In this document: positions 7,880-17,699 of the stretch, piece after piece | Position numbering within the stretch: the first letter of the stretch is position 1 | Layout: each line of letters starts with the position of its first letter | The notes under the pieces: model-generated | Told to the model about the DNA's origin: nothing | What the model saw: only the letters and a program-made list of their open reading frames with translations | The model's database searches: none | Origin: Pseudomonas sp. PSE14 | Lineage (GTDB): Bacteria; Pseudomonadota; Gammaproteobacteria; Pseudomonadales; Pseudomonadaceae | Length of the DNA stretch: 64,000 nt | Reading direction: 5' to 3' | Assembly (NCBI RefSeq): GCF_029203285.1 | Contig: NZ_CP115669.1 | Span: 3,162,001 to 3,226,000 of the forward strand | Translations under genes and position numbers: made by a program

Positions 7880-8263
7880 TCAAGTCTGCTGGAAGCAATA
7901 GGCGGCAATCTTGTTGCCATCCAGATCACGGAAGTACGCCGCGTACGCGTTTTCCTTCCAATTACGGGGACCGGGGGTACCTTCGTCCCTGCCACCACAG
8001 GCAAGGGCGGCAGTGTGAGCGGCATCGATAGCGGGCCGGTCGGGCGCCTCGAAGCTCACGGTGACGCCATTGCCGACAGTCGCGGGCTCGCCGTTGGCAG
8101 GTTTCAGCACAAAGAACGAGGGAGCGTCGACGCCCCAGATGGAGCCATTCTCGCCGAGGTCGGCGAGACGCTTCATCCCCAGCTTGCCGAGGACTTCGTC
8201 ATAGAAGGCCCGAGCCTTGGGCAAGTCGTTCGTGCCAACTGTTACATGTGTGTAGATAGACAT
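7880..8263 (-). CDS. VOC (glyoxalase/dioxygenase superfamily) protein
   Basis: A 127-residue single vicinal-oxygen-chelate domain: MSIYTHVTVGTNDLPKARAFY at the start and YAAYFRDLDGNKIAAY at the end. The start at 8263 is chosen for the GGAGA just upstream; a longer frame adds seven residues. It begins 17 bp after frmA, as the last gene of the Rieske-lyase operon. In formaldehyde loci such small VOC proteins often follow glutathione-dependent dehydrogenases, so a glutathione-linked role is plausible but not shown. It resembles the VOC protein at 51488-51892. Confidence 0.85.
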   Translation of the reverse strand: MSIYTHVTVGTNDLPKARAFYDEVLGKLGMKRLADLGENGSIWGVDAPSFFVLKPANGEPATVGNGVTVSFEAPDRPAIDAAHTAALACGGRDEGTPGPRNWKENAYAAYFRDLDGNKIAAYCFQQT

Positions 8264-8280
8264 TGATCTCTCCTTACTGG

Positions 8281-9396
8281 TCATTGGAAATGAATGACGC
8301 TGCGAATGCTCTTGCCCGCATGCATCAGTTCGAACGCCTGGTTGATGGCGTCCAGACCCATGGTGTGAGTGATGAAGGTGTCCAGTGGAATGTCGCCCTT
8401 CTGTGCCATCTCCACGTAGCTCGGCAGTTCACTACGGCCGCGTACACCGCCGAAGGCCGAGCCGCGCCAGACACGCCCGGTGACCAGCTGGAACGGCCGG
8501 GTGGAGATCTCCTGGCCTGCCCCGGCCACGCCAATGATCACCGACTCGCCCCAGCCCTTGTGGCAGCACTCCAGCGCCGCGCGCATCAGTTGGACGTTGC
8601 CGATGCACTCGAAGGAATAGTCCACGCCCCCATCGGTGAGATCGACGATCACGTCCTGGATCGGCTTGTCGTAGTCGCGCGGGTCGATGCAGTCGGTGGC
8701 GCCAAGCTGGCGAGCGATCTCGAACTTCGCTGGATTGATGTCGACGGCGATGATCCGCCCGGCATTCGCCTTCACCGCGCCGATGATTGCCGACAGACCA
8801 ATACCGCCCAGGCCGAAGATCGCCACGCTGGAACCCGCGTGCACCTTGGCGGTGTTGAGCACCGCGCCGATTCCGGTGGTGACACCGCAGCCGAGCAGGC
8901 AGACCTTCTCCAGCGGGGCGCTCCGGGGAATCTTCGCCAATGAGATTTCCGGCAATACGGTGTACTCGGAAAAGGTCGAACAGCCCATGTAGTGGAACAG
9001 CGGGCGCCCTTCGAAGGAGAACCGCGTGGTGCCGTCCGGCATCAGGCCTCTCCCCTGGGTCGTTCGGATCGCCTGACACAGGTTGGTCCGGCCGGAGCGA
9101 CAGAACTTGCACTGCCCGCACTCGGGTGTGTACAGCGGGATCACGTGGTCGCCGACCGCCACCGAGGTCACTCCAGGGCCGACCGCCTCGACGATGCCGC
9201 CGCCCTCATGGCCGAGAATGCTCGGGAAGATACCCTCCGGATCGGCGCCAGACAGGGTATACGCGTCGGTATGACAGACGCCGCTGGCGACAATGCGCAC
9301 CAGCACCTCACCGGCGCTGGGCGGAGCCACGTCCACCTCGACAATCTGCAATGGCTGCCGCTGTTCGAAGGCGACGGCAGCTCGGGATTTGATCAT
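8281..9396 (-). CDS. frmA: S-(hydroxymethyl)glutathione dehydrogenase (class III ADH)
   Basis: A 371-residue zinc alcohol dehydrogenase oxidising the formaldehyde-glutathione adduct with NAD+. Catalytic zinc motif [30 protein letters not shown], structural zinc cluster [15 protein letters not shown] and the Rossmann [10 protein letters not shown] are intact, and [17 protein letters not shown] is class III specific. It is embedded in an operon that starts with a VanA-like demethylating oxygenase, which would generate formaldehyde, so its job here is very likely local formaldehyde disposal. A strong hairpin precedes its ribosome binding site. Confidence 0.93.
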
Positions 9397-9415
9397 GCCT
9401 GTATCTCCTGGTCCG

Positions 9416-15554: not shown

Positions 15555-16608
15555 GGACTGTGACCTCGTCGACTTTGCGCAGGCCAACGGCCTCCTGCTC
15601 CTCACGGATCAGTCGCTCGATGCCTCGGCGGAAACGCAGCGGGCCGGAGTCGATGGCCAGGTCGATGTTCGGCGTCTGGCGGTTCTTCATCCCGGCATGC
15701 ACGGCGGCGAGCACCAGACGGTCTTCCTCGAAGGCACGGCGCACGTCGGCGGCGAACCGGCGGGACACGTCCTCGTCGTCAGCGTCGAAGTTGCGCAACT
15801 GGAACCAGTAATAGCGGGTGCGATTCTCGTCGACCGGCGTCATGAAGTTGTACGAATCCATCAGGAACGCCTGCTCGTGCATCGGCGCCCCTTCGCCACC
15901 GCTACCGGCCGGGGTGTGCACGCCCTTGATGATGGCGTGGGACGGATAGCGCACCTCGTAGTACTGCAGCCGGTCGCAGCGGCCCTGGAACTTCAGGTAC
16001 TGCCGATAGAACGGCGCCACTTCAATGTCATGCAGCCAGCGTGACACCACCACACCGTTGTCGTTGACCCGGGTTTGCAGCGGCTCCGATTCGCAAGCCG
16101 AGGTACCGAAGGTACTCTGGTGTACCCAGGCGACATGGGAGGGATCGAGCAGGTTGTCGGTCATGTACAGGTAGTTGCACTCGACGGTCATCGAGTCGCC
16201 ACGATTGACGCCCCAGTTCGGATCGTCCCACTCCGGGATATCGAGCAGCTTGGCCGGATCGGCCAACTGCGGATCGCCCATCCACAGCCAGACCAGGCCG
16301 TAGCGCTCCTCCACTGGATAGCTGCGAACCTGCGCGGCCTGCGGCACCCGCGGCACGCAACTGGCCTTCACGCAGGCGCCGGAGCAGTCGAACGTCAGTC
16401 CATGGTAACCACACTCGACCAGATCACCCTGCAGGCGCCCCATGGACAACGGCAGTTTGCGGTGCGGGCAGGCGTCTTCCAGAGCGACGACAGTGCCGTC
16501 GGCCTTGCGATAGAGAACGACGGGCTCACCCAGCAGAATGGTCGCGTGCAGGGCCTGTTTCACTTCACTGTCCCAGGCGGCTGCGTACCAGGCGTTTTTC
16601 AGGAACAT
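15547..16608 (-). CDS. VanA-like Rieske non-heme iron oxygenase (probable demethylase)
   Basis: A 353-residue oxygenase component, matching VanA in length and layout (MFLKNAWYAAAW start). The Rieske [2Fe-2S] ligands are C47, H49, C66 and H69 (CPHR...CGYHG). The mononuclear iron motif DNLLDPSHVAWVH gives D155, H158 and H163 as likely ligands. VanA relatives remove O- or N-methyl groups as formaldehyde, consistent with frmA in the same operon. First gene of the nine-gene unit and divergent from the LysR gene. Substrate unknown; an N-methylated amino acid or betaine is favoured over vanillate because of the amino acid importer. Confidence 0.92.
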   Translation of the reverse strand: MFLKNAWYAAAWDSEVKQALHATILLGEPVVLYRKADGTVVALEDACPHRKLPLSMGRLQGDLVECGYHGLTFDCSGACVKASCVPRVPQAAQVRSYPVEERYGLVWLWMGDPQLADPAKLLDIPEWDDPNWGVNRGDSMTVECNYLYMTDNLLDPSHVAWVHQSTFGTSACESEPLQTRVNDNGVVVSRWLHDIEVAPFYRQYLKFQGRCDRLQYYEVRYPSHAIIKGVHTPAGSGGEGAPMHEQAFLMDSYNFMTPVDENRTRYYWFQLRNFDADDEDVSRRFAADVRRAFEEDRLVLAAVHAGMKNRQTPNIDLAIDSGPLRFRRGIERLIREEQEAVGLRKVDEVTVHA

Positions 16609-16760
16609 GTCTCATGGCTCCTCTTGTTGTTATTCGAAGCGAGCTTCTTGAGGGAGAGCGTAGGAGCGTGAGACCCAAAAGAATAGATATCCTTTCCTGT
16701 TGCTTATTTAAGATTTTCTAAAATATAAATGGCGCGATTCTTGAGCCCTCAGGAGCCACC
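16609..16760. promoter_or_regulatory. Divergent promoter region, oxygenase operon / LysR
   Basis: A 152-bp gap between divergent starts with an AT-rich core at about 16681-16740 (CTTATTTAAGATTTTCTAAAATATAAATG) in otherwise GC-rich DNA. LysR regulators normally bind such a gap and control both directions. No exact T-N11-A operator can be asserted by eye. Confidence 0.55.
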
Positions 16761-17699
16761 ATGAGCCACCTCCCCCCTTTGCGCGCACTGGAGATATTCG
16801 AGGCCGTCGGCCTCTGTGGCAGCATTTCCCAGGCCGCCAAGCGCCTGGGGATTTCCGCCGGCGCGGTCAGCCAGCAGATGAAGTTGCTGGAAGACGCTGT
16901 CGGTATCAGCCTCACGGTCAAGGATGGTCAGCGCCTGCGCCTCAACGCGGTTGGCCAGCGCTTTCACGAAGGCTGCAATCAGGCCTTCGAGCGACTGCGG
17001 GCCGCGACAGCAGAGTTGGAGCGCGCGAAGAACGCCAACAATCTCTACGTCAGCGCCCTGCCTTCGCTGCTGTCCAAATGGCTCGCGCCGCTGGTGACCG
17101 AGTGGCAGAGGGAGTTTCCGGCACTGAGCGTCTACCTCGACGGCACCCACACCGAGCCGTCTCAGTCCGAGGCTAATGGCGCGGACTTTCGCATCAGCTA
17201 TGGCGAAGGCATCCACGATGACCAGCACACCATCGAACTCTTTCGCGATTGCGTGGTACCCGCATGCAGCCCTGCCCTGCTTGCGACCGCGGTGCCGCCG
17301 GAAGCTGCCGGTAGCCTGCTCGAGTATCCGCTGCTAACCATCGACTGGCGCCCCAGGTTCGACTCGCCACCCTCATGGGCGGAGTGGTTCGCGTTGAATG
17401 GCGTGCATGGCGCATCCATCAGCAACAGCAGGGTCTACTCGCTTTCATCCATGGCCATCGAGGCGGCCATCCAGGGGCAGGGTCTGGTGCTGGCCCAGTA
17501 CTCGATGATCAGCGGGGATCTGGCGCGCGGCCAGCTGATCGTTCCATGCCTTCGCGCCCTGCCAATGCCTGCGTCGTACTATCTGACCTGGAACCGGAAC
17601 AATTTCCACAAGGCACAATGCCGGGACTTCCAGCGCTGGCTGATCGCACGCGGACAGGACCAGCAACGCATGACGAACGAACTGCTGGGTTCTGCCTGA
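16761..17699 (+). CDS. LysR-family regulator of the Rieske-lyase operon (GcvA-like)
   Basis: A 312-residue LysR protein of the GcvA/AmpR-like branch: LPPLRALEIFEAVGLCGSISQAAKRLGISAGAVSQQM is its helix-turn-helix, and the sensor domain runs from about residue 93. It is transcribed away from the oxygenase with a shared AT-rich gap, the usual arrangement for a dedicated activator. The inducer is probably the imported compound or a breakdown product. Tandem GTG/ATG choices do not affect the domain picture. Confidence 0.9.
   Translation: MSHLPPLRALEIFEAVGLCGSISQAAKRLGISAGAVSQQMKLLEDAVGISLTVKDGQRLRLNAVGQRFHEGCNQAFERLRAATAELERAKNANNLYVSALPSLLSKWLAPLVTEWQREFPALSVYLDGTHTEPSQSEANGADFRISYGEGIHDDQHTIELFRDCVVPACSPALLATAVPPEAAGSLLEYPLLTIDWRPRFDSPPSWAEWFALNGVHGASISNSRVYSLSSMAIEAAIQGQGLVLAQYSMISGDLARGQLIVPCLRALPMPASYYLTWNRNNFHKAQCRDFQRWLIARGQDQQRMTNELLGSA

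What the first reader, a model, noticed from the sequence alone, without database searches (positions are those of the whole stretch)
7880..17699. A nine-gene operon coupling amino-acid import, Rieske demethylation, MIO-less lyase and formaldehyde disposal
Seen: uninterrupted leftward gene order oxygenase-reductase-SBP-permease-permease-ATPase-lyase-frmA-VOC, small gaps or overlaps, and a divergent LysR. Inference: the importer brings in an N-methylated aromatic amino acid or betaine (hercynine, ergothioneine, methylhistidine or similar); the VanA-like enzyme releases methyl groups as formaldehyde, FrmA clears it, and the lyase removes the amine. I know of no described pathway with exactly this set.
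Basis: inference. Interest (0 to 1): 0.9.

Follow-up and report, generated by a model that had tools for sequence, protein, structure and literature searches.

The report
Operon for degrading methylated histidine betaines
A bacterium of the Pseudomonas family carries a gene set that probably imports methylated forms of the amino acid histidine, strips off methyl groups and the amine, and feeds the rest into ordinary histidine breakdown; the exact substrate is still to be tested.

Summary
In detail: nine leftward genes (7880-16608) and a divergent LysR (16761-17699). The lyase has the histidine ammonia-lyase (HAL) fold, but the cofactor triad Ala-Ser-Gly is Tyr-Leu-Gly; all 32 rows of its clade lack the triad. 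Seven Pseudomonadaceae loci share LysR-oxygenase-reductase-importer-lyase (type A). Sixteen sister loci (type B) show the lyase without oxygenase; five carry a urocanase, which tests as plain HutU, so the lyase product is probably urocanate. The oxygenase also occurs at 63-70% identity in 21 fetched clusters without the lyase that variously hold DUF2817, amino-acid importer, HisC-like or HutC genes, four with FrmA and Gfa. FrmA is in 7 of 28 oxygenase clusters and 0 of 24 lyase loci without oxygenase. Types A and B share a LysR promoter block, also seen in some oxygenase clusters. Best reading: a cofactor-free lyase releases trimethylamine from a histidine betaine (hercynine type), giving urocanate for the hut pathway, while the VanA-type enzyme removes a methyl group, probably from the imidazole ring, as formaldehyde. 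Substrates are inferred.

The parts
16761..17699 (+). LysR regulator (nearest NCBIfam model GcvA, below cut-off), divergent
   Evidence: PF03466/PF00126; 59-60% identical to LysR of two type B loci and 56-58% to three oxygenase/DUF2817 clusters
16609..16760 (.). Divergent promoter region with a TTTAGA..CT.AA block conserved in types A and B
   Evidence: alignments and shuffle tests
15547..16608 (-). Rieske oxygenase, VanA_C type, predicted N-demethylase
   Evidence: PF19112 164 bits, PF00355; C47, H49, C66, H69, H158, H163, D296 invariant in 6 type A rows (the metal-ligand roles are recalled)
14445..15605 (-). FAD/NAD/2Fe-2S reductase for the oxygenase (start codon uncertain)
   Evidence: PF00970, PF00175, PF00111
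13447..14352 (-). Family 3 solute-binding protein; best solved relatives bind opines
   Evidence: PF00497; octopine/nopaline-binding proteins are the top PDB hits
12628..13401 (-). Polar amino acid ABC permease (nearest model HisQ)
   Evidence: PF00528
11877..12614 (-). Polar amino acid ABC permease (nearest models ArtM, HisM)
   Evidence: PF00528
11095..11871 (-). ABC ATPase (nearest model HisP)
   Evidence: PF00005; first ATG read from the translation
9454..11022 (-). MIO-less HAL-family lyase (Tyr157-Leu158-Gly159), predicted histidine-betaine trimethylamine-lyase
   Evidence: PF00221 539 bits; motif; tree
8281..9396 (-). S-(hydroxymethyl)glutathione dehydrogenase FrmA, second copy in the genome
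   Evidence: TIGR02818 711 bits over 544; other copy at G000:C1:4415251, 84% identical
7880..8284 (-). Small VOC-fold protein, role unknown
   Evidence: PF00903; in 5 of 7 type A loci

Best explanation
The operon is a catabolic route for a methylated histidine, most likely a histidine betaine of the hercynine type that may also carry a ring N-methyl group, or for two related substrates. The ABC importer takes it in. The Rieske oxygenase and its reductase remove a methyl group, probably from the imidazole ring, as formaldehyde, which FrmA clears with glutathione. The MIO-less lyase eliminates trimethylamine from the alpha carbon; the quaternary amine is a good leaving group, so no MIO cofactor is needed. 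The product, urocanate, enters the hut pathway through HutU encoded elsewhere in the genome. LysR controls the operon. Shown: anatomy, missing MIO triad, conserved gene sets, promoter block shared by types A and B, HutU link of sister operons, FrmA link of the oxygenase family. Inferred: substrates, order of steps, ring position of the methyl group, trimethylamine as leaving group, action of LysR.
For: Lyase clade: 32 of 32 rows lack Ala-Ser-Gly (clade support 100/100), against a second MIO-less clade of 6 rows and 11 rows that keep the triad; Tyr68, His98, Asn208, Arg294 and Glu428 are invariant in 20 rows. A urocanase follows the lyase in 5 of 16 type B loci; the one tested (L007) scores 1016 bits for HutU and stays under the cut-offs of the thio and S-methylthio models. 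In the 4 genomes compared the operon copy is 99, 99, 100 and 90% identical to the other HutU of the genome. A HutH1-like lyase sits there in 2 of 16. Oxygenase: 21 fetched clusters without the lyase carry histidine-type genes, 4 of them FrmA and Gfa. FrmA in 7 of 28 oxygenase clusters and 0 of 24 type B and C loci, one-sided Fisher p 0.009. VanA_C matches, Ring_hydroxyl_A stays below cut-off (same for L080). In 398 Pseudomonadaceae, 5 of the 7 genomes with a close oxygenase also have the lyase, against 3 with lyase alone. Promoter block.
Against: No biochemistry. The importer is of the amino-acid type, not the betaine type described for ergothioneine uptake (PMC9732360, passages); its binding protein has an Asp (FED) where the opine-binding relatives have Asn or Ser, at what I recall as the alpha-ammonium site, which fits a free amine at least as well as a betaine. 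No trimethylamine oxidation gene lies in the operon; a dimethylamine-type PF11927 oxygenase is in 5 of 9 genomes searched, this one included. I know of no natural betaine methylated on both ring and alpha nitrogen. FrmA is missing from 4 of 7 type A operons, urocanase from 9 of the 14 type B loci where it could be judged. The Fisher test treats related loci as independent.
Confidence: 0.5

Rival explanations
1. Two parallel substrates under one regulator: hercynine is cleaved by the lyase, and N-methylhistidine is demethylated by the oxygenase to histidine for the normal hut pathway; the importer serves both.
For: The lyase occurs without the oxygenase in types B and C, and the oxygenase without the lyase in 21 fetched clusters; both branches would end in hut.
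Against: One importer and a fixed gene order in the 7 type A loci suggest one route; type A lyases alone have Gly159 beside the lost cofactor site.
Confidence: 0.25
2. The oxygenase is a trimethylamine (or alpha-N-methyl) demethylase that consumes the amine released by the lyase or strips the betaine directly.
For: Co-occurrence with a putative trimethylamine-lyase and FrmA.
Against: Relatives at 63-70% identity lie in clusters with no lyase but with histidine-type genes; the catalytic domain is VanA_C, whose known members act on aryl-bound methyl groups (recalled); type B and C loci show no such oxygenase.
Confidence: 0.13
3. Ergothioneine pathway: the lyase is an ergothionase giving thiourocanate.
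For: Ergothionase is a MIO-less relative of the same family (PDB 6s7j; PMC13405746, passages and section 3.1).
Against: The lyase scores 343 bits against a HAL and 161 against ergothionase 6s7j; in 13 genomes the HutU family gives only canonical HutU and short fragments; the type B urocanase tested is plain HutU. A thiourocanate desulfhydrase route was not searched for.
Confidence: 0.08

Closest known systems
Ergothionase (ergothioneine trimethylamine-lyase; Treponema denticola 6s7j, Burkholderia sp. HME13)
   Same: HAL-type family, no MIO cofactor, expected elimination of trimethylamine from a histidine betaine
   Different: 161 bits to 6s7j against 343 to a HAL; sister operons carry HutU, not thiourocanate hydratase; the HME13 sequence was not compared
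Histidine ammonia-lyase HutH and the hut pathway
   Same: Closest solved relatives, active-site residues kept, expected downstream urocanate route
   Different: Ala-Ser-Gly replaced by Tyr-Leu-Gly, so no MIO; own regulator and importer
[quoted passage not shown] fluorescens SBW25; PMC8871633, passages)
   Same: The HutH1-like protein of this genome is also MIO-less (Tyr-Leu-Thr); a homologue stands beside the lyase in L010 and L014
   Different: Separate clade, different importer
VanA-type demethylases: dicamba demethylase DdmC, methylxanthine demethylases NdmA/NdmB
   Same: Rieske plus VanA_C domain; DdmC and NdmA/NdmB are among the PDB hits; formaldehyde as expected product
   Different: Gene neighbourhoods of histidine type; best PDB hit is 7qwt at E 2.6e-48

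Membership tests
Histidine ammonia-lyase (HutH) | Aromatic amino acid lyase domain | tested here: met
   PF00221 539 bits
Histidine ammonia-lyase (HutH) | Ala-Ser-Gly triad that forms MIO | tested here: not met
   Tyr157-Leu158-Gly159
Histidine ammonia-lyase (HutH) | Score over the TIGR01225 equivalog cut-off | tested here: not met
   533.1 against 539.15; the looser subfamily model PRK09367 is passed, 538.1 against 524
Ergothionase | No MIO in a HAL-type protein | tested here: met
Ergothionase | Closest to known ergothionase by sequence | tested here: not met
   6s7j scores 161 bits, HALs up to 343; HME13 protein not available
Ergothionase | Thiourocanate hydratase in the genome | tested here: not met
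   HutU-family search of 13 genomes, 5 of type A and 8 of type B: canonical copies of at least 1011 bits and fragments of at most 52 bits
Ergothionase | Releases trimethylamine from ergothioneine | not testable with these tools
   needs an enzyme assay
VanA-type O/N-demethylase | Rieske and VanA_C domains with partner reductase | tested here: met
VanA-type O/N-demethylase | Formaldehyde release | tested here: inconclusive
   Genetic link to FrmA or FrmA+Gfa only
FrmA | TIGR02818 equivalog score | tested here: met
   711 over 544

The most novel reading that the evidence does not exclude
A pathway, not described in anything my searches could see, that degrades ring-methylated histidine betaine: it joins a Rieske N-demethylase for the imidazole of a histidine derivative to a hercynine-type trimethylamine-lyase that makes urocanate without MIO. 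The same logic would explain the puzzling HutH1 of Pseudomonas hut loci.
Probability: 0.33. Interest if true: 0.78.

Novelty: new variant of a known kind. Interest (0 to 1): 0.62.

Why it matters
Histidine betaine (hercynine) is common in cyanobacteria and, in one soil study, was depleted from biocrust water although none of the isolates tested used it (PMC4595634, passages). This operon and its sisters name candidate genes for such use and for demethylation of methylhistidines, and suggest that some proteins annotated as histidine ammonia-lyase are betaine lyases. All parts can be tested in vitro.

Tried and rejected
Ergothioneine as substrate: weakened. Trimethylamine demethylation by the oxygenase: weakened by the clusters without lyase. 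I tried to see the ergothionase sequence through PDB alignments with fragments of the HutH1-like lyase; only five alignments are shown, and it ranked eighth or was not found. Structure prediction was not possible. Paper searches for ergothionase, thiolurocanic, hercynine with Rieske, methylurocanate, thiourocanate, hercynine with trimethylamine and Pseudomonas, ergothioneine sulfonate, methylhistidine with Rieske, histidine betaine, and hutH1 listed no paper that I recognised as describing this gene set; I read passages of five papers (PMC13405746, PMC9967237, PMC4595634, PMC9732360, PMC8871633) and one section of the first. Most subscription papers are not held. One that may bear on it was seen only as a reference (ergothioneine sulfonate pathway, doi 10.1021/acscatal.2c00169); another I recall by title only (bacterial degradation of N-tau-methylhistidine), and the DOI I guessed for it is not held. 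A phylum-wide sample found the lyase (E up to 1e-120) only in this genome, 1 of 398. An XdhA-like gene upstream of the type C lyase L026 was left as probably unrelated; its conservation was not checked.
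Full report
Anatomy. The nine leftward genes and divergent LysR are present at the stated coordinates. With the longest frames neighbouring genes are spaced from -59 to 92 bases; the ATPase probably starts at the ATG near 11871. FrmA passes its curated cut-off (711 against 544 bits), and the genome holds a second FrmA over the cut-off, 84% identical. The oxygenase matches Rieske and VanA_C (164 bits), while Ring_hydroxyl_A stays below its cut-off. The importer is of the polar amino acid type; the best solved relatives of its binding protein are octopine- and nopaline-binding proteins, that is, proteins for amino acids substituted on the alpha nitrogen (recalled). 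Against a betaine, it has an Asp where those relatives have Asn or Ser, at what I recall as the alpha-ammonium site.

The lyase. It scores 539 bits for PF00221 and just misses the hutH equivalog cut-off, while passing a looser subfamily model. Where HAL has Ala-Ser-Gly it has Tyr-Leu-Gly. In a tree of 49 rows the window clade of 32 rows (100/100) lacks the triad in every row; a second MIO-less clade of 6 rows holds HutH1-like and related proteins; the remaining 11 rows keep it. Rows identical over their last 350 residues were collapsed first, and seven hits were dropped: four as too short (one of them, L036, an MIO-bearing HAL) and three for lacking the GSVG landmark. The program warns of long branches, so I do not claim how often the triad was lost. 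Tyr68, His98, Asn208, Arg294 and Glu428 are invariant in 20 rows; that these are HAL active-site positions, with His and Glu at the imidazole, is recalled. Changes found in all 31 type A, B and C rows and in none of the 11 triad rows include Tyr157, Glu161 and Asp344; type A alone has Gly159.

Relatives. Of 36 loci found, 5 are type A, 16 type B, 8 type C (Paraburkholderia, Trinickia and one Burkholderia sp.) and 7 others, all with at least one triad-bearing lyase. With the window and L049, the 7 type A loci have LysR, oxygenase, reductase, importer and lyase; FrmA is in 3 and VOC in 5. Type A is defined by this set, so the set itself is no test; but its lyases form one clade (100/96). Type B has LysR and lyase in 16 of 16, importer genes in 13 (two cut by contig ends; in the other three the contig ends first), and no oxygenase was seen. 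A urocanase lies after the lyase in 5 of 16 (L020 cut by the contig end) and a HutH1-like lyase in 2; two contigs (L015, L016) end too soon to tell, and 7 have neither.

What the lyase makes. The type B urocanase tested (L007) scores 1016 bits for HutU (cut-off 375), and 706 and 690 bits for the S-methylthio- and thiourocanate hydratase models, below their cut-offs of 880 and 930. Four type B genomes with an operon urocanase have a second full HutU elsewhere; operon and other copy are 99% (L096/L105), 99% (L098/L106), 100% (L100/L107) and 90% (L108/L101) identical (which copy is the operon one follows from contig coordinates). So the operon uses an ordinary urocanase and the lyase most likely yields urocanate. 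In 13 genomes (5 type A, 8 type B) the HutU family gave full copies of at least 1011 bits and otherwise only short fragments of at most 52 bits, which speaks against a thiourocanate hydratase. The window genome has two HutU genes, one in its hut locus.

What the oxygenase does. In plasmids, 34 records hold relatives at 60-80% identity. I fetched 19 of the 30 listed, plus two genome loci (L050, L051), 21 in all; some are near-identical (L070, L078, L081). By reading the table: a related LysR in 21 of 21 (broken into two frames in L079), reductase in 19, DUF2817 in 20, a binding protein of amino-acid type in 20, HisC-like aminotransferase in 10, HutC in 2, FrmA with Gfa in 4, MIO-less lyase in 0. 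L050 lies beside hutC, a HutH with the triad and a HisC-like gene. One cluster is on a plasmid of a meat isolate of P. fragi, which would fit anserine or methylhistidine as food source (inference). FrmA is found in 7 of 28 oxygenase clusters and in 0 of 24 type B and C loci (one-sided Fisher p 0.009; loci are related, so this is descriptive). Together this makes formaldehyde release likely and ties the enzyme to histidine-like substrates. Ring rather than alpha-N demethylation is inferred from the VanA_C domain and is the weakest link.

Co-occurrence and control. In 398 Pseudomonadaceae the oxygenase (E up to 1e-70) is in 9 genomes, two of them only 38-39% identical; the lyase (E up to 1e-150) is in 8. 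For the divergent promoter I tested 3 of 7 type A against 6 of 16 type B regions: best 45-base matches are 26-34 bases, and in 17 of 18 pairs this exceeds every one of 60 shuffles, the exception being window against L009 (26 against a maximum of 27). Of 11 oxygenase/DUF2817-type clusters compared in the same way with 20 shuffles, L071, L074 and L083 are clearly above them, L050 marginally and L089 in three of four comparisons, the other six in some or none. LysR identity to the window is 59-60% for two type B loci and 56-58% for three oxygenase clusters, but 34% for type C and 39% for a rhizobial-type cluster.

Judgement. The substrate class (methylated histidine), formaldehyde release and urocanate as product are supported by genomic context; the exact substrate, the leaving group and the order of steps are inference. 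The closest known principle is ergothionase, but the lyase fails the sequence-proximity and genome-context tests for that family, so I say it works like an ergothionase acting on hercynine and is not shown to be one.

Noticed in passing
L065:10943-12475 (G000 hut locus) and L127:17555-19084: A HutH1-like protein in the hut locus, beside HutI and ABC importer genes, also lacks the MIO triad (Tyr-Leu-Thr). PMC8871633 (passages) states that hutH1 of P. [quoted passage not shown] it may be a histidine-betaine lyase.
   Followed up: partly
L006:15137-21165: A second cluster with an enolase-superfamily protein, a Ring_hydroxyl_A Rieske oxygenase, a further MIO-less lyase (Tyr-Ile-Ser) and a 2Fe-2S reductase; possibly another betaine route.
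   Followed up: partly
L050, L070-L074, L076-L089: Plasmid- and chromosome-borne clusters of Rieske oxygenase, DUF2817, amino acid importer, HisC-like aminotransferase, sometimes FrmA+Gfa; candidates for N-methylhistidine or anserine catabolism.
   Followed up: partly
L075:7986-9560: Plasmid of a cockroach-gut deltaproteobacterium carries a lyase of the same clade (50% identical, Tyr-Leu-Ala) next to a gene annotated as sodium:solute symporter.
   Followed up: no
L051:631-3227: Dimethylamine-monooxygenase-like genes (PF11927, and a reductase) about 6 kb from the oxygenase.
   Followed up: no
L125:5596-12256 (G000): Second HutU next to a HutC-like regulator and a transporter similar to the one in the main hut locus.
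   Followed up: no
window 4884-6977: An SBP_bac_11 binding protein and an MFS transporter lie downstream on the same strand; neither was seen downstream of the operon in L004, L005, L006, L022 or L024; the L049 stretch is too short to tell.
   Followed up: partly
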